A DNA stretch of 43,914 nucleotides from contig CALXRV010000036.1 in NCBI GenBank assembly GCA_944390945.1, positions 1 through 43,914 of the forward strand. The letters are read 5' to 3'. Both the position numbers and the translations under genes were made by a program. The notes under the pieces are model-generated. The model made no database searches, was not told where the DNA came from, and worked only from the letters and a program-made list of their open reading frames with translations. Source of the DNA: an uncultured Clostridia bacterium (lineage in GTDB: Bacteria; Bacillota; Dehalobacteriia; UBA4068). Positions 36,137 through 43,034 of the stretch are shown here, piece by piece. The stretch's first letter is position 1. Each line of letters begins with the position of its first letter.

Positions 36137-37825
36137 TTATTTTTCTTCTCCGCCATCTTTTGTCGCTTTTTGCGGCCAAAAAACCGTAAAGACCGAGCCT
36201 TCATCAAGCCGGCTTTGCGCCTGCACCACTGCGCCATGATAAGCCGCTGCATGCTTGACGATCGAAAGCCCCAGGCCGGTGCCGCCTTCCTGCTTGGAAC
36301 GACTCTTATCCACCCGATAAAAACGCTCAAATACACGATCCAGTTTTGCGGCAGGAATCCCAATGCCTGTATCCGCCACAGTCAGACGAATCCCCTCTGC
36401 ATCCTCGCTTACGGTTACGGTCAATGAACCATTTTCCCGATTGTAGCGGATCCCATTATCACAGAGATTATAAATCATATCCTCCAGGATCTCCGGCACG
36501 CCGCGCACAAGCGCGGCACAGCCTTCCAGCCGACAGGTGATATGCTTTTCCGCTGCTGCATCGCGCAGATTGGCGAGCACATGCTCCGCCAGCGCATAAA
36601 GATCGACCATCACCTTTTCAGCCGGAATCGCCTCTTCATCCAGCTGGGAAAGACGGATAATATCGCTGACCAAAGAGATCAGCCTCTGCGCTTCATCATA
36701 AATCTTTCCGGCAAAGCGCGGCACATCCTGCGGTTGTACCATATTGTTGCGAATGATCTCGGCAAATCCGGAAATGGAGGTCAGCGGCGTTTTCAATTCA
36801 TGAGAAACATTGGCGGTAAACTCGCTGCGCAACCGCTCCCATTCCTTTTTCTCCGTAATGTCAACGATCAGTAGTACCATGCCGACACATTCCGCATCAC
36901 GCCGTACCGGATTAGCCAGCAGCTGATAGTCCTTATCCCCTAGCTGCAACTCACGTCGGCAGGCCTGGCCGGAAAGCGCAGCACGTACTGCATCGCGTAA
37001 TGCCTTACTGCGGTTCAGCGTAAATACGCTGGCGTTTTCCTCTGATGCAACTGCCCCAAGCAGAGAGATAGCCGCTGAATTAAAGGAAAGCACCTTCGCA
37101 TGCCTGTCGAGAATCAAAAACCCTTCGCTCATATTTTCCGTGATCGCAGTAAATTCTTGCTGTTTGCGCCGCAAACCTTCCATCTGCTCCCGAATCGTTT
37201 CGTTTTGATGGATAATCCGGGTCAACAGCGGCGCCAGCTCGTCATATGCCTCATCATCCATTTCCGGATGATCCAGGTCAATACGATTGATCGGCTCCAC
37301 AATGCGCCGTGCGGCACGCGAGGCCAGCACCAGCGAAACCAGCATCGCCGCAGCCAGAATCAACATCACGGCCGGCACCATATCGATCAGCAGAGCCAGA
37401 ACGCCGCTCTGCGTACCGGCAATACGCAGTACACTGCCATCTGCCAGCAGCAATGCATAATAGAGCGTTTTTTGGCCAAGCGTTTCAGAATAGCGCGCCG
37501 CCTCTCCGCTGCCATTTGCTAATGCAGCCTGAAATTCAGGCCGGTCGGCATGATTCTCCATCGCAGCCGCCGCAGTGTCGCTGTCATACAGCACTTCCCC
37601 CGATGCCGTAATCCAGGTGATGCGCCGTTCCGATGAATCCAGCTCCTCCAGATACGCGCTGCCCTCATGCGACAGCCCCTGCGCAATAAAGCCCGCCTCA
37701 TTTTCCAGATCGCTACGCAGCTGCCGCCCGAAATGCGTATACAATACGCTAAGCAGCAAGATCATGCTGAGCAGCAGCACGATAAGGGAAACAAGAAAAG
37801 CCGCACGGAAAATTCGCTTTGTCAT
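36137..37825 (-). CDS. phoR: Phosphate-responsive sensor histidine kinase PhoR
   Basis: Membrane sensor kinase of 562 residues. Two membrane helices (about 8-30 and 145-168) enclose an extracytoplasmic sensor region. A HAMP-like stretch, a PAS domain (about 225-325, ENMSEGFLILDRHAKVLSFN), the phosphoacceptor His342 in FTANVSHELKTPLTSISGF and an ATPase domain (YNLCDNGIRYN, VADTGIGIP, GGTGLGLSIVKH) follow. The start overlaps the phoB stop (ATGA). As last gene of the pst-phoU-phoBR run it is assigned to phosphate control. The kinase type itself is generic, so the PhoR name rests mainly on context. Confidence 0.92.
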   Translation of the reverse strand: MTKRIFRAAFLVSLIVLLLSMILLLSVLYTHFGRQLRSDLENEAGFIAQGLSHEGSAYLEELDSSERRITWITASGEVLYDSDTAAAAMENHADRPEFQAALANGSGEAARYSETLGQKTLYYALLLADGSVLRIAGTQSGVLALLIDMVPAVMLILAAAMLVSLVLASRAARRIVEPINRIDLDHPEMDDEAYDELAPLLTRIIHQNETIREQMEGLRRKQQEFTAITENMSEGFLILDRHAKVLSFNSAAISLLGAVASEENASVFTLNRSKALRDAVRAALSGQACRRELQLGDKDYQLLANPVRRDAECVGMVLLIVDITEKKEWERLRSEFTANVSHELKTPLTSISGFAEIIRNNMVQPQDVPRFAGKIYDEAQRLISLVSDIIRLSQLDEEAIPAEKVMVDLYALAEHVLANLRDAAAEKHITCRLEGCAALVRGVPEILEDMIYNLCDNGIRYNRENGSLTVTVSEDAEGIRLTVADTGIGIPAAKLDRVFERFYRVDKSRSKQEGGTGLGLSIVKHAAAYHGAVVQAQSRLDEGSVFTVFWPQKATKDGGEEK

Positions 37826-38499
37826 TTGTTCTGCGCCCCGATTCGATAGCCAACGCCACGCACCGTTTCAATGCAATTACCGCATACCCCTAATTTTTGC
37901 CGGAGATTGCGGATATGCACGTCCACCGTGCGGCTTTCGCCGTCATATTCATAACCCCAGATGCGATTCAACAGCTGGTCGCGGGTAAACACAAAACCCT
38001 GGTTTTCCAGCAACAAGCAGAGCAGTTCAAATTCCTTCAATGTCAGGCTGATCTCCTGGCCCCCACAGCGCACGATATGCTGCGCAGGGGAAAGGTAAAG
38101 ATCCCCCACCCGATATTCTACGCTTTCACCGCCATTGCCGCTGCGCCGCAGCAGCGCACGGATACGGGCCAGCAGCTCCATCATACCAAAGGGTTTCGGC
38201 AAATAATCGTCCGCACCAGCATCCAGCCCCAGCACCTTGTCATACTCACCGCCTTTTGCCGTAAGCATCATCACCGGCAATCGGCTGGTCGCAGCCGCGG
38301 CACGCAGGCGGCGCAGAATCGTCAATCCATCTTCCTCCGGCAACATAATATCGAGCAAGATCAATGAAGGCAGCTGCCGCTCCATCGCCCGCCAGAATGC
38401 GGAAGGCAATGCAAAACCTTCCGCCTGCATTCCCTGGCTATTCAGCGTATAGACGACCAGTTCGCGTATGCTTGCATCATCCTCGACGATATAGATCAT
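37822..38499 (-). CDS. phoB: Phosphate regulon response regulator PhoB (PhoP-type)
   Basis: OmpR/PhoB-family regulator of 225 residues. The receiver domain has Asp50 as phosphorylation site (LILLDIMLPEEDG), acidic residues at 7-8, and KPF near 100. The C-terminal winged helix has LTLKEFELLCLLLENQGFVFTRDQLLNRIWG and RTVDVHIRNLRQKLG. The start has AGGAGG just upstream, overlapping the phoU stop, with three bases between genes. It is expected to activate the pst operon when phosphate is low. I could not identify a convincing set of Pho boxes upstream of pstS. Confidence 0.95.
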   Translation of the reverse strand: MIYIVEDDASIRELVVYTLNSQGMQAEGFALPSAFWRAMERQLPSLILLDIMLPEEDGLTILRRLRAAAATSRLPVMMLTAKGGEYDKVLGLDAGADDYLPKPFGMMELLARIRALLRRSGNGGESVEYRVGDLYLSPAQHIVRCGGQEISLTLKEFELLCLLLENQGFVFTRDQLLNRIWGYEYDGESRTVDVHIRNLRQKLGVCGNCIETVRGVGYRIGAQNK

Positions 38500-38502
38500 G
38501 CC

Positions 38503-39150
38503 TCATCCTCCTACATGCACTCCAGTCAGAGAAAATTCCACCCATTCGGCGATATTCACCGCATGATCGCCGATTCGTTCCAAATATTTTGCCACCATCA
38601 GCAGGTCAAGGCAAAAGCCGCCGGCTGACGGTTTTTCACCGATCAAACCGATCAGTTCGGTTTTCACCTGGTCAAAAAGGCGATCCACCACATCGTCTTC
38701 CGCCGCTACCGCGCGCGCCAGTTCCAGATCCTTGTGCACAAAAGAATCGATGCTGCCGGTGACCATATGAATCGTCGCTTGCGCCATATCCTCGATATGC
38801 ACGCGCCCGGTCATCTTCTCGCCATCGATATAACGGCTGATCTCTGCGATATCGGCCGCCTGATCGCCGATGCGCTCCATATCGGAAACCATTTTCAGTG
38901 CCGAACTGATCGCGCGCAGATCGCGCGCTACCGGCTGCTGCTGCAGCAGCAATTTCAGACAGAGCGCCTCGATATCCCGCTCCTTGCGATCGATCTCTGC
39001 ATCGATCTCCAGCACCTGCGTTGGCAGCGTATCATCGTTTTCCAGCAGCGCGCGTACCGCCATGGCGATCGCATCCTCGCAGCGCGCGCCCATCCCGATC
39101 AATTCCGTATTCAGCCTCTCCAGCTGGGCATCAAATCTTTCCCGCATCAT
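38503..39150 (-). CDS. phoU: Phosphate signalling protein PhoU
   Basis: A 215-residue all-helical protein with the two PhoU repeats, each carrying the metal-binding pattern ([17 protein letters not shown] and [19 protein letters not shown]). It links the PstSCAB transporter to PhoR and restrains phosphate uptake and Pho signalling. The start, one of two adjacent ATGs, overlaps the pstB stop (ATGA). Its place between pstB and phoB is the classic arrangement. Confidence 0.97.
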
Positions 39151-39896
39151 CCGAACCTCCCCGTGATATAATCTTCCGTTCTTTTTTCCCTGGGATTGGA
39201 AAAAAGCTGTTCGGTCGCACCGGTTTCCACCACTTCTCCCAGCAGGAAAAAAGCCGTTCGGTCTGAAATACGCGCTGCCTGCTGCATATTATGCGTCACG
39301 ATCACGATCGTATAATCCTTTTTCAATTCTATCACAAGATCTTCGATTCTTGAAGTCGAAATCGGATCCAATGCGCTGGTCGGTTCATCCATCAGCAACA
39401 CATCCGGCTGCACAGCCAGAGCACGGGCAATGCACAGCCGTTGCTGCTGGCCGCCACTCATCCCGAGCGCGCTCTTTTTCAGCCGGTCTTTGGCTTCATC
39501 CCAGATCGCTGCAGCACGCAACGACTTTTCCACAATCTCATCCAGCCGCGCCTTGCTGTGGATGCCATGCGTGCGCGGGCCGTAAGCGATATTATCATAG
39601 ATGCTCATCGGGAAGGGATTTGGCTTTTGGAATACCATACCTACACGACGGCGTAATAAATTGACGTCAATATCGCCATGGATATCCTCGCCATCCAGCA
39701 AAATTTTGCCTTTGATCCGGCAGCCTTCCACAAGGTCGTTCATGCGGTTCAACGATTTGAGCAAGGTCGTCTTACCGCAGCCAGAGGGGCCGATGAAAGC
39801 GGTCACCTCATTGGCCTGTATCGCCAGGTCCACCTGGCGCAGCGCCTGAAATGTACCATAATACAGATCCAGCTTCTGGATATTGAACTTATCCAT
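39147..39896 (-). CDS. pstB: Phosphate ABC transporter ATP-binding protein
   Basis: ATPase of the high-affinity phosphate importer, 249 residues. Walker A is GPSGCGKTT (36-44), the signature is [17 protein letters not shown], and Walker B is [38 protein letters not shown] is characteristic of PstB. The gene lies 21 bases after pstA and overlaps phoU. Confidence 0.98.
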
Positions 39897-39917: not shown

Positions 39918-40775
39918 TCAGCCCCGCCGCCGCGTCAGCCGGCGGGCGGCAAAAGCAGAAAGTGCGTTCAGGCCGACCACCAACAGCAGTAGGACAACGG
40001 CCGTGGCATAAGATTCTTCCATATAAAGCCCTTCTGAAGTCAGCGCATACATATGCACGGCCAGCGTACGGCCGGATTCCATCAGCGAACTGGGTACCAC
40101 TGCCGCTGTGCCGGCAGGATAGATCAGCGCCGCCGTCTCGCCGACAATACGGCCAATGCCCAGAATCACGCCGGCCAGGATGCCCGGCATGGCCGAAGGT
40201 AAAATAATGCTGAATACCGTGCGCAGCCTGCCCGCGCCAAGGCCAAAGCTGCCTTCGCGATATGCATCCGGCACGGCAAGCAAAGCTTCCTCTGTCGTGC
40301 GCATGATCAACGGCAGAATCATGATCGCCAATGTCAAACTACCGCCCAACATGGAATAGCCCCAGTCCAGCTTCATGAAAAAGAAAAGGAAGCCAAACAA
40401 GCCATAGACGATGGAAGGAATGCCGGCCAGCGTTTCTGTTGTCAACCTTACCGCCGAAACCAGCCGGTTACCGCGTTTGGCATATTCGACAAGATAGATC
40501 GCCGCCGCCACGCCAACCGGTATGGCAAACAGCAGGGTCAGCACGGTCATTATCACCGTATTGATCAAAGCCGGCAGCATGGAGACATTTTCCGTCGAAT
40601 ACTGCCAGGCGAACAGCTCCGGCTTCAGGTTTGGAATACCGCGAATCAGAATATAGGCGATCAGGAACAGCAATACGCCGATGGTCATCACCGCCGCTGC
40701 GATCACCAGCGCCCGCAGAAAAAGGGAAAGCGGATGAATACGCTTTTTTATTCGCGCAGACTGCACGGCCGCCAT
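39918..40775 (-). CDS. pstA: Phosphate ABC transporter permease PstA
   Basis: Integral membrane permease of 285 residues with about six helices and a long cytoplasmic N-terminus. The PstA signatures are TTETLAGIPSIVYGLFGFLFF and YREGSFGLGAGRLRTVFSIILPSAMPGILAGVILGIGRIVGETAALIYPAG. The ATG overlaps the pstC stop by one base (TGATG). Confidence 0.97.
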   Translation of the reverse strand: MAAVQSARIKKRIHPLSLFLRALVIAAAVMTIGVLLFLIAYILIRGIPNLKPELFAWQYSTENVSMLPALINTVIMTVLTLLFAIPVGVAAAIYLVEYAKRGNRLVSAVRLTTETLAGIPSIVYGLFGFLFFFMKLDWGYSMLGGSLTLAIMILPLIMRTTEEALLAVPDAYREGSFGLGAGRLRTVFSIILPSAMPGILAGVILGIGRIVGETAALIYPAGTAAVVPSSLMESGRTLAVHMYALTSEGLYMEESYATAVVLLLLVVGLNALSAFAARRLTRRRG

Positions 40776-41623
40776 CAGTACCCCCTCCTCTTCAACAGGG
40801 AAAACGTCAGATTGATGATCAAAATAAAGACAAACAATACCACCGCCGTAGCGATCAGCGCCTCGCGGTGCAGATCAGCCGCATAGCCCATTTCCAATAC
40901 GATATTGGCCGTCAAGGTACGCACGCCGGAAAGCAGGCTTTCCGGTATCACCGGCTGATTGCCGGCGATCATCACCACCGCCATCGTCTCGCCTACCGCC
41001 CGGCCGACGCCAAGCACCACACCGGCCATGATACCGGAGCGTGCCGCCGGCACAACGGTAAAGAACACGCTGCGTTCATGCGTCGCACCAAGTGCCAACG
41101 CACCTTCATAATAACTTTCCGGAACCGCGCGGATCGCGGATTCCGCCACGCCGATCACCGTGGGCAAAATCATGATCGCAAGCAAAATCGATGCCGTTAA
41201 CAGGCCTTTACCACTGCTGCCCGTCAGCTGCTGCATCAGCGGTACCAGCACGACCAGACCGAAGAAACCGTATACGATGGAAGGAATGCCAGCCAGCAGC
41301 TCGACCATCGGCTTCAGTACCCGGTAGAGACGTGCGGGACAAAAATGCACCAGAAAAACGGCGCAAAGAATGCCGATTGGTACGCCGAGCAGCACTGCGC
41401 CTGCCGTAACATAAATGCTGCCGACGATCATCGGAAAAATACCATAGATATCGCTCAGCGGCCGCCAAACACTGCCGAAGAGGAAATCCCCCACCCCGAT
41501 CTCCAGCATCGCAGGCACGCCGTTGGCGAAAAGGAAAATACAGATCAGCAAGACTGCGATGATCGAAACGCAGGCGGCTGCCAGGAATACGATGCGCATC
41601 ATGCTTTCCGTTATGTTTTTCAT
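40775..41623 (-). CDS. pstC: Phosphate ABC transporter permease PstC
   Basis: Integral membrane permease of 282 residues. LLAGIPSIVYGFFGLVVLVPL, the EAA-type loop YYEGALALGATHERSVFFTVVPAARSGIMAGVVLGVGRAVGETMAVVM and six hydrophobic helices identify PstC. The start at 41623 follows GGAG at 9 bases, and the in-frame ATG at 41677 lies in the intercistronic hairpin and is rejected. It is separated from pstS by about 140 bases holding a stable stem-loop. Confidence 0.97.
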   Translation of the reverse strand: MKNITESMMRIVFLAAACVSIIAVLLICIFLFANGVPAMLEIGVGDFLFGSVWRPLSDIYGIFPMIVGSIYVTAGAVLLGVPIGILCAVFLVHFCPARLYRVLKPMVELLAGIPSIVYGFFGLVVLVPLMQQLTGSSGKGLLTASILLAIMILPTVIGVAESAIRAVPESYYEGALALGATHERSVFFTVVPAARSGIMAGVVLGVGRAVGETMAVVMIAGNQPVIPESLLSGVRTLTANIVLEMGYAADLHREALIATAVVLFVFILIINLTFSLLKRRGY

Positions 41624-41653
41624 TCGCAGCGACTCCTTCCTTCGGCGGAACAG

Positions 41654-41683
41654 CGGGCTGCGCGAATCTCTTCGCACAGCCCG
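41654..41683 (-). promoter_or_regulatory. Strong stem-loop between pstS and pstC
   Basis: A 13-bp stem (one G-U pair on the minus strand) closes a GAGA loop: CGGGCTGTGCGAA pairs with TTCGCGCAGCCCG. No T run follows, so it is unlikely to be a full terminator. Its position fits an mRNA-stabilising or attenuating element that raises binding protein levels over permease levels. Confidence 0.6.
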
Positions 41684-41762: not shown

Positions 41763-42701
41763 TTATTCAAGTTCACCCCAGTTGGCGACAGCGCCGGTAA
41801 ATATGGCTTTCACCTGATCTGCGGTCAGATTATCAAGCGGATTGTCATTGTTGACGATCACTGCGATGCCGTCGAGTGCGATCACGGTCGGCGTCAGACC
41901 GCCTGCCAATTCGCTATCTTTCAGCTCGCGGGAGGCCATGCCGATATCGCAGGAACCTTCCATCGCCACCGTCATCCCGGTCGAAGAATCACTCTGCTGG
42001 ATCTCGATCGTCACATTTGGGTTGATCTCCGCATATGCTTCCTTCAGCGCTTCCATCACCGGTGTTACGGAAGAGGAACCCGCCACAACGACTGTCCCTT
42101 CAGGCTGTGCGCTGGTAAAAGCAGGCGCGTCACCCACGCTGATATATCCTTCTTCCGTCACAACTGCCTGGCCATCCGCACTGAGAATGAAGTCGATGAA
42201 ATCCTGCGCCGCATCGCTCACCGTAGCCAGCGTTGCGATATTGAAGGGACGGGAAATTGCATAGCTGCCATTCTCGATGTTCTCCACCGTTGCCGCCACA
42301 CCGTCGATCGCCAACGCTTTGACCGAATCACTCAGCGAACCGAGGGAAACATAGCCGATCGCGTTCACATTACCGGCCACGGTCGTCATCATCACCGCAG
42401 TGCTGTTGGTGATCTCTGCCGCAAGCGTCGTCATGTCGACCGCCTCGCCGGATTCATCTTCTTCTTCAATCGCAAACAGCTCGATAAATGCGCCATGCGT
42501 ACCGGAGCCATCCTCGCGCCGAACAACGGTGATCGGGCCGTCATTGCTGTTTTCTTCTCCGCCGTTACCCTCGCTGCTTTCAGCCCCATCGGCAACATCC
42601 GCGCTCCCATCCGCAGCACCATCGTTTCCGCTGCCTGCACAACCAGCCAGCATGCAGGCAAACAACATCAGACCAAGCAGCAATACCATCATTTTTTTCA
42701 T
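41763..42701 (-). CDS. pstS: Phosphate-binding lipoprotein PstS, with apparent circularly permuted lobes
   Basis: Solute-binding lipoprotein of 312 residues. A signal peptide ends in the lipobox LAGC with Cys21, followed by an acidic, Gly/Ser-rich linker to about 55. ITVVRREDGSGT (57-68), usually in the middle of PstS, comes first, with IGYVSLGSLSDSVKALAIDGV, RPFNIAT and a FIDFILSADGQAVV helix. The usual N-terminal half, VVVAGSSSVTPVMEALKEAYAEINPNV and DIGMASREL, ending IFTGAVANWGELE, comes last (about 203-312). All phosphate-site elements are present but in swapped order. The start at 42701 follows AAAAGGAGAG. First gene of the pst-pho operon. Confidence 0.93.
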   Translation of the reverse strand: MKKMMVLLLGLMLFACMLAGCAGSGNDGAADGSADVADGAESSEGNGGEENSNDGPITVVRREDGSGTHGAFIELFAIEEEDESGEAVDMTTLAAEITNSTAVMMTTVAGNVNAIGYVSLGSLSDSVKALAIDGVAATVENIENGSYAISRPFNIATLATVSDAAQDFIDFILSADGQAVVTEEGYISVGDAPAFTSAQPEGTVVVAGSSSVTPVMEALKEAYAEINPNVTIEIQQSDSSTGMTVAMEGSCDIGMASRELKDSELAGGLTPTVIALDGIAVIVNNDNPLDNLTADQVKAIFTGAVANWGELE

Positions 42702-42761: not shown

Positions 42762-42789
42762 AATATACGCGCCGGATGTTAACGGCAAA
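42762..42789 (-). promoter_or_regulatory. Possible pstS operon promoter
   Basis: On the minus strand TTTGCC (42784-42789) and TATATT (42762-42767) are separated by 16 bases, about 60 bases before the pstS start. TTAACA elements nearby on the minus strand are reminiscent of PhoP boxes but lack the regular spacing needed to call them. Confidence 0.4.
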
Positions 42790-42976
42790 ATCCTGCTGCT
42801 GTTAAATCCGGGTAAAACCGCGTCCACGATCATTGCTTTTTTCCGCTGTCCAGCATATCGAGCGTCACGATCTGCACCAATGCCAAACCAAGGCGCCGCA
42901 ATCGGTTTTGTCAAAGCATAATCTTGGACAACAATGATTTCCAGGGGATAAAAACAACGCTTTTTTTTGAAAACAG

Positions 42977-43005
42977 TTGACAAAGCTGCGCTGATCTGTT
43001 AAAGT
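42977..43005 (+). promoter_or_regulatory. Plus-strand promoter without an obvious gene
   Basis: A perfect TTGACA (42977-42982) and TAAAGT (43000-43005) are separated by 17 bases. The expected start point falls within the inverted repeat at 43007-43034. No ribosome binding site plus open frame follows on this strand within 200 bases. Confidence 0.55.
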
Positions 43006-43006
43006 T

Positions 43007-43034
43007 AATTTAGTTAGTAATAACTAACTAAATT
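43007..43034. promoter_or_regulatory. Perfect 12-bp inverted repeat, candidate repressor operator
   Basis: AATTTAGTTAGT (43007-43018) and ACTAACTAAATT (43023-43034) form a perfect palindrome with a 4-base centre, directly after the -10 box of the plus-strand promoter. The TTAGTTAG core is like operators of MarR- or TetR-type repressors. No such regulator is coded nearby. It is AT-rich and has no T run, so it is not a terminator. Confidence 0.7.

What the first reader, a model, noticed from the sequence alone, without database searches (positions are those of the whole stretch)
41763..42701. PstS with the two lobe halves in swapped order
In well-known PstS proteins the segment with GSxxxxP and the helix following it is N-terminal, and the RxDGSGT segment lies in the second half. 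Here DGSGT is at 64-68 and AGSSSVTPV is at 207-215, the protein ends at the IFTG...NW element that normally precedes the DGSGT half, and both parts appear complete. This is what a circular permutation would look like. Because the lipid anchor now attaches to the other lobe, opening of the binding site relative to the PstCA permeases may differ. Relatives in gut Clostridia may share this order, so it could be a clade trait rather than unique.
Basis: partly seen in the sequence, partly recalled or inferred. Interest (0 to 1): 0.6.

Follow-up and report, generated by a model that had tools for sequence, protein, structure and literature searches.

The report
Circularly permuted phosphate-binding lipoprotein PstS
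The phosphate-catching protein of this bacterium's phosphate pump is built from the usual parts in rotated order, and it belongs to a whole family of such rotated proteins, one of which (pneumococcal PstS2) already has a solved structure, so the rotation is real and old rather than a freak of this genome.

Summary
Confirmed. The minus-strand ORF 41763-42701 encodes a 312-aa lipoprotein PstS in which the RxDGSGT half (residues 56-190) precedes the GSSSVTP half (201-312). No second GSSS segment precedes DGSGT. It is a complete circular permutation: the predicted fold matches one solved PstS end to end, pneumococcal PstS2 (4h1x; rmsd 1.4 Å, TM 0.96), and canonical PstS over only about half its length. 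A canonical control model does the reverse.

The gene opens a normal pstSCAB-phoU-regulator-kinase operon. Ninety-five other loci from Clostridia, Coriobacteriia, Chloroflexota and Treponema share the order, nearly all in front of pstC. Trees of the whole protein and of each half put the permuted proteins on one side of one branch (whole protein 100/95), which fits one origin followed by horizontal spread. Tandem double-PstS proteins in another lineage show that the duplication step expected of a permutation does occur.

The order itself is therefore not new, because 4h1x has had it since 2012. I found no paper in the open library that describes it. Phosphate binding and import are inferred. 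Any effect of moving the lipid anchor to the other lobe is untested.

The parts
41763..42701 (-). pstS, permuted phosphate-binding lipoprotein, 312 aa plus stop
   Evidence: translation; TIGR02136 in two swapped pieces, E 1.2e-60; PF12849 in two pieces
42639..42701 (-). signal peptide up to the lipobox cysteine LAGC (C21)
   Evidence: sequence; lipobox pattern also in 87 of 92 permuted relatives
42537..42638 (-). acidic low-complexity linker from anchor to domain (residues 22-55), low pLDDT
   Evidence: sequence; AF2
42132..42536 (-). half B (residues 56-190), C-terminal half in canonical PstS
   Evidence: half profile and PDB alignments
42498..42518 (-). RREDGSGT phosphate-loop motif, R62-T68
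   Evidence: R62 E63 S66 G67 T68 near-invariant in permuted and canonical proteins
42102..42131 (-). new joint between the old C-terminus and the old N-terminus, about 10 residues (2 in the tandem double PstS)
41766..42101 (-). half A (residues 201-312), N-terminal half in canonical PstS; ends at the IFTG..NW element, the permutation break
42060..42080 (-). GSSSVTP motif, residues 208-214
   Evidence: G208 S209 S211 V212 near-invariant in permuted and canonical proteins
40775..41677 (-). pstC permease ORF (true start probably internal)
   Evidence: PF00528 E 9e-21; pstC next to permuted pstS in 93 of 95 loci
39918..40775 (-). pstA permease
   Evidence: PF00528 E 5.5e-20
39147..39896 (-). pstB ATPase
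   Evidence: PF00005; 80-82% identical pieces in L152/L153
38503..39150 (-). phoU
   Evidence: PF01895 E 2.7e-47
37822..38499 (-). PhoB/PnpR-type response regulator
   Evidence: PF00072 + PF00486
36137..37825 (-). PhoR/PnpS-type sensor kinase
   Evidence: PF00512 + PF02518

Best explanation
This is the substrate-binding lipoprotein of the organism's Pst phosphate importer, and a natural circular permutant of PstS. Shown: the two halves of a canonical PstS are both present, complete and in rotated order, the break lies in the loop between the IFTG..W element and the RxDGSGT strand, and the old ends are joined by about 10 residues. The fold is predicted to be the ordinary two-lobed PstS with rotated connectivity. 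Inferred: it closes on phosphate like any PstS (the motif residues are kept) and hands it to PstCA encoded directly downstream. Inferred: the order arose once, most likely by in-frame tandem duplication of pstS followed by loss of the outer halves, and was then passed vertically and horizontally among anaerobic Bacillota and a few other phyla; pneumococcal PstS2 belongs to the same group. Inferred from textbook PstS topology: the lipid tether now enters the lobe carrying the RxDGSGT loop instead of the lobe carrying the GSxS loop. Whether that matters for transport is unknown.
For: Collinear phmmer match of residues 48-311 to 4h1x 2-264 (E 1.2e-61), against two swapped pieces in 4q8r, 4gd5 and 1twy. 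AF2 model pLDDT 88.7; Foldseek: 4h1x end to end, E 4e-35, TM 0.96 on the target, rmsd 1.4, while 1twy and 4gd5 match over only 110-137 columns. Reverse control: the model of a canonical relative matches about 40 PstS entries end to end and 4h1x is not in its top 50; its secondary-structure elements follow the same series with a different starting point. Profile architectures: 99 BA, 45 AB, 2 ABAB. Trees: permuted rows lie on one side of one branch, 100/95 in the careful whole-protein tree; halves A and B alone give the same split, 82 and 93. pstC follows in 93 of 95 loci and the full pstSCAB-phoU-RR-HK order in 53. 31 near-invariant residues are shared by permuted and canonical proteins, including R62 E63 S66 G67 T68, G208 S209 S211, S239, S257 R258. 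The pneumococcal Pst2 system imports phosphate in vivo (PMC4913102).
Against: No binding or transport measurement exists for this protein. The link from 4h1x (SP_2084, named PstS 2) to the Pst2 of the D39 paper is by name only. Support for a single origin is high but rests on about 250 columns, and two permuted rows are long or deep (4h1x; L131, left out of the careful tree). The tandem double PstS is not sister to the permuted clade, so it shows only that the intermediate can exist.
Confidence: 0.9

Rival explanations
1. The permuted order arose several times independently, for example once in streptococci and once in Clostridia.
For: 4h1x sits on a long branch (0.86) at the base of the permuted group, and the divergent L131 was left out of the careful tree.
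Against: One change of order on the quick tree including L131, 100/95 on the careful tree, and the same split from each half alone. The break point and the joint length (10-11 residues in all) are constant.
Confidence: 0.08
2. A chimera: two half-genes of different ancestry were joined, rather than one PstS being rotated.
For: A B-then-A order could in principle come from a fusion; a mixed origin was suggested for the permuted part of Tp0684 (PMC4990184).
Against: Separate trees of the two halves both put the permuted proteins together against the same canonical set, and both halves have their best solved canonical relatives in the same proteins, 4q8r and 4gd5.
Confidence: 0.04
3. Assembly error, frameshift or pseudogene that only looks permuted.
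For: The genome is a 68-contig assembly, 85% complete, and the ORF lies near a contig end.
Against: Intact ORF with RBS and lipobox, heading an intact operon; 95 other loci including isolates with closed genomes, and a crystal structure, have the same order.
Confidence: 0.01
4. It binds a different oxyanion or serves signalling rather than phosphate import.
For: Direct substrate data are lacking. D238 is a clade-typical residue next to the S239 loop, where canonical proteins have G.
Against: pstC-pstA-pstB-phoU-RR-HK follow directly; TIGR02136 scores 205 bits in spite of the rotation. The tungstate-type paralogue at C11 of the same genome is canonical and separate.
Confidence: 0.05

Closest known systems
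Streptococcus pneumoniae PstS2 (SP_2084, PDB 4h1x)
   Same: Same rotated order, collinear over the whole domain, 46% identity in the structural alignment, TM 0.96.
   Different: Basal long branch in the tree; it shares its genome with a canonical PstS1 (4exl).
Canonical PstS of the TIGR02136 type (4q8r, 4gd5 from Clostridium perfringens; 1twy from Vibrio cholerae)
   Same: Same family, motif residues and operon role; both halves align with E-values of about 1e-25.
   Different: Halves in the opposite order; the N-terminus and tether are on the GSxS side.
Treponema pallidum Tp0684 / MglB-2 (type Ic binding protein, PMC4990184)
   Same: Natural circular permutation of a tethered ABC binding protein, with relatives in gut Gram-positives.
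   Different: Glucose-binding type I fold, unrelated sequence, another break point.
OpuAC and other glycine-betaine-binding proteins as circular permutants (CPSARST, PMC2395249)
   Same: Circular permutation within the type II binding-protein fold.
   Different: Different ligand and family; relation seen by structure only.
Tandem double PstS in family f126 of the same phylum (L129, L130)
   Same: Contains the B-then-A junction inside an A-B-A-B protein in a pst operon.
   Different: Two full canonical domains, 527 aa; not sister to the permuted clade.

Membership tests
PstS (TIGR02136 subfamily) | Matches the family model over its whole length | tested here: met
   205.2 bits in two swapped pieces, just under the 206.6 cut-off because of the rotation; all 51 aligned relatives match it
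PstS (TIGR02136 subfamily) | Segment order GSxS half before RxxGSGT half | tested here: not met
   order reversed in this protein and in its clade
PstS (TIGR02136 subfamily) | Phosphate-loop residues conserved | tested here: met
   31 near-invariant residues shared with canonical proteins
PstS (TIGR02136 subfamily) | Encoded with pstC, pstA, pstB, phoU | tested here: met
PstS (TIGR02136 subfamily) | Binds phosphate and feeds PstCAB | not testable with these tools
   needs biochemistry; Pst2 of pneumococcus imports phosphate (PMC4913102)
Circular permutant of PstS | All parts present once, rotated, with the old ends joined | tested here: met
Circular permutant of PstS | Same fold with rotated connectivity, shown with an order-sensitive structural comparison and a control | tested here: met
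   predicted models only:
Permuted PstS2-type clade | Groups with 4h1x and other permuted proteins in a tree built without using the order | tested here: met
   100/95 in the careful tree; halves 82 and 93

The most novel reading that the evidence does not exclude
A single ancient circular permutation founded a PstS class, spread over several phyla, in which the membrane tether is wired to the other lobe, and this changes how the open and closed receptor meets PstCA or how PhoU signalling reads transport. That would be a selected functional redesign, not a neutral rearrangement.
Probability: 0.15. Interest if true: 0.65.

Novelty: new member of a known kind. Interest (0 to 1): 0.4.

Why it matters
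PstS is a textbook binding protein, and a whole natural clade with rotated connectivity gives matched pairs (even within one genome, as in pneumococcus) for asking whether chain order and anchor position matter to an ABC importer. It also exposes an annotation blind spot: linear family models fall just under their cut-offs on these proteins, so relatives are filed as 'substrate-binding domain-containing protein' and the phosphate receptor looks missing or unnamed.

Tried and rejected
Literature searches for PstS with circular permutation, for 4H1X and for permuted binding proteins found no description of a permuted PstS in the open library; subscription papers are not covered. The D39 Pst1/Pst2 paper contains no mention of permutation. 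Tethering as the cause of the permutation: rejected as a sufficient explanation, since canonical relatives carry lipoboxes as often (37 of 44 against 87 of 92) with similar linker lengths. Tandem PstS as the direct ancestor: not supported by the tree. Phage carriage: the two best 'phage' records hold a whole pstSCAB stretch and look like bacterial DNA; viral fold library, no relevant match. A search centred on a locus of another phylum was not accepted by the tool, so prevalence outside the window's own phylum was not measured. No coordinates were available in the script box, so the lobe position of the N-terminus was not measured.

Full report
Observation. The reverse strand of 41763-42701 encodes 312 residues with a lipobox (LAGC, C21), an acidic linker, RREDGSGT at 62-68 and AGSSSVTPV at 207-215, ending just after the IFTG..NW element. 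A ribosome-binding site lies in front of the ATG at 42701.

Sequence against solved structures. The best PDB relative is 4h1x, pneumococcal PstS2, and it aligns in one collinear piece over residues 48-311. Canonical PstS structures 4q8r, 4gd5 and 1twy align in two pieces in swapped order, and a profile of 51 relatives gives the same picture. So a structure with this very order has been in the PDB since 2012. Pneumococcus has both kinds: PstS1 (4exl) is canonical.

Fold. AlphaFold2 on an alignment of 51 sequences gave pLDDT 88.7, with only the signal peptide and linker poorly predicted. Foldseek, which follows chain order, matched 4h1x end to end (TM 0.96 on the target, rmsd 1.4 Å) and canonical PstS 1twy and 4gd5 over only 110-137 columns. 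As a control I modelled a canonical relative (L143); it matched about 40 PstS entries end to end, and 4h1x was not among its 50 best. The secondary-structure elements of the two models follow the same series with a different starting point.

Where the cut lies. Canonical relatives read ...IFxGEITNWKxVGGxDAxIVVVxREEGSGT.... The permuted proteins end at or just after the W and begin, after the anchor linker, at the strand before RE.GSGT. The old C-terminus and old N-terminus are joined through about 10 residues (10-11 in all permuted proteins, 2 in the tandem proteins).

Surroundings. Downstream lie pstC, pstA, pstB, phoU, a response regulator and a sensor kinase. Among 95 other permuted loci, pstC is next in 93, and 53 show the full pstSCAB-phoU-RR-HK order; many of the rest are cut short by the fetched stretch. 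Monoglobus and Treponema saccharophilum records show the same pst operon. The window's genome has a canonical tungstate-type binding protein elsewhere but no second clear PstS in the 85% that is assembled.

Spread. The nearest relatives, found with the permuted protein as query and so not a fair sample, are Lachnospiraceae, Oscillospiraceae, other Clostridia, Eggerthellaceae and Flexilinea. Fairer samples: in 398 genomes drawn from the phylum, 14 carry an end-to-end permuted match, while most PstS are canonical (with 149 genomes agrees). In the window's class, 18 of 43 genomes carry it, and two of these (G417, G418) also carry a canonical one.

History. I cut permuted and canonical proteins into halves, aligned the halves separately and joined them in canonical order, so that the order itself does not enter the tree. 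The permuted proteins, 4h1x included, form one side of a branch with 100/95 support. Each half alone gives the same split (82 and 93). This fits one rotation event of one gene and speaks against a chimera. The four sampled permuted proteins of the window's own family do not form one clade within the group (AU p 0.007), which suggests horizontal transfer or old paralogy. Two genomes of another family carry a 527-aa protein with two full canonical PstS domains in a pst operon, the type of intermediate that duplication and loss would pass through, but these are not sisters of the permuted clade.

Mechanism. Shown: complete rotated fold (predicted), kept motif residues, operon. From the literature: the pneumococcal Pst2 system takes up phosphate in vivo (PMC4913102); that its PstS2 is the protein of 4h1x rests on the name. 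Inferred: phosphate binding and delivery to PstCA as in any Pst system. From textbook PstS topology (own knowledge, not measured here), the canonical N-terminus sits in lobe I and the new one in lobe II, so the tether changes lobe. I have no evidence that this alters function. Tethering does not explain the rotation, because canonical relatives are lipoproteins as often.

Known or new. Circular permutation of tethered binding proteins has been described for Tp0684 of Treponema pallidum, including gut Gram-positive relatives (PMC4990184), and for glycine-betaine-binding proteins (PMC2395249). For PstS I found no description in the open library, but the library is incomplete and 4h1x shows the order. 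I therefore file this as a new member of a known kind, with an apparently undescribed clade around it.

Noticed in passing
42777-43002: Three TTAACA hexamers on the pstS sense strand within 300 bases upstream of pstS (the + strand TGTTAA occurs only 6 times in the whole window); reminiscent of Pho boxes, not tested.
   Followed up: partly
43007-43034: Perfect 12-base inverted repeat AATTTAGTTAGT-AATA-ACTAACTAAATT about 300 bases upstream of pstS; possible operator.
   Followed up: partly
L129 1102-2685 and L130 1102-2685: Two genomes of one family encode a tandem double PstS (two complete canonical domains in one lipoprotein) in front of pstC.
   Followed up: yes
41763-42701, L146, L147: Rotated PstS scores 1.4 bits under the TIGR02136 cut-off, and two relatives in pst operons are annotated only as 'substrate-binding domain-containing protein'.
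   Followed up: partly
L152, L153 (MT837530.1, MT837962.1): Records deposited as phage carry permuted pstS followed by pstC, pstA and part of pstB, so they are probably bacterial DNA.
   Followed up: yes
residue D238, 41988-41990: Permuted proteins of this group have D before the S239 loop where canonical relatives have G (4h1x has G); possible ligand-loop signature.
   Followed up: no
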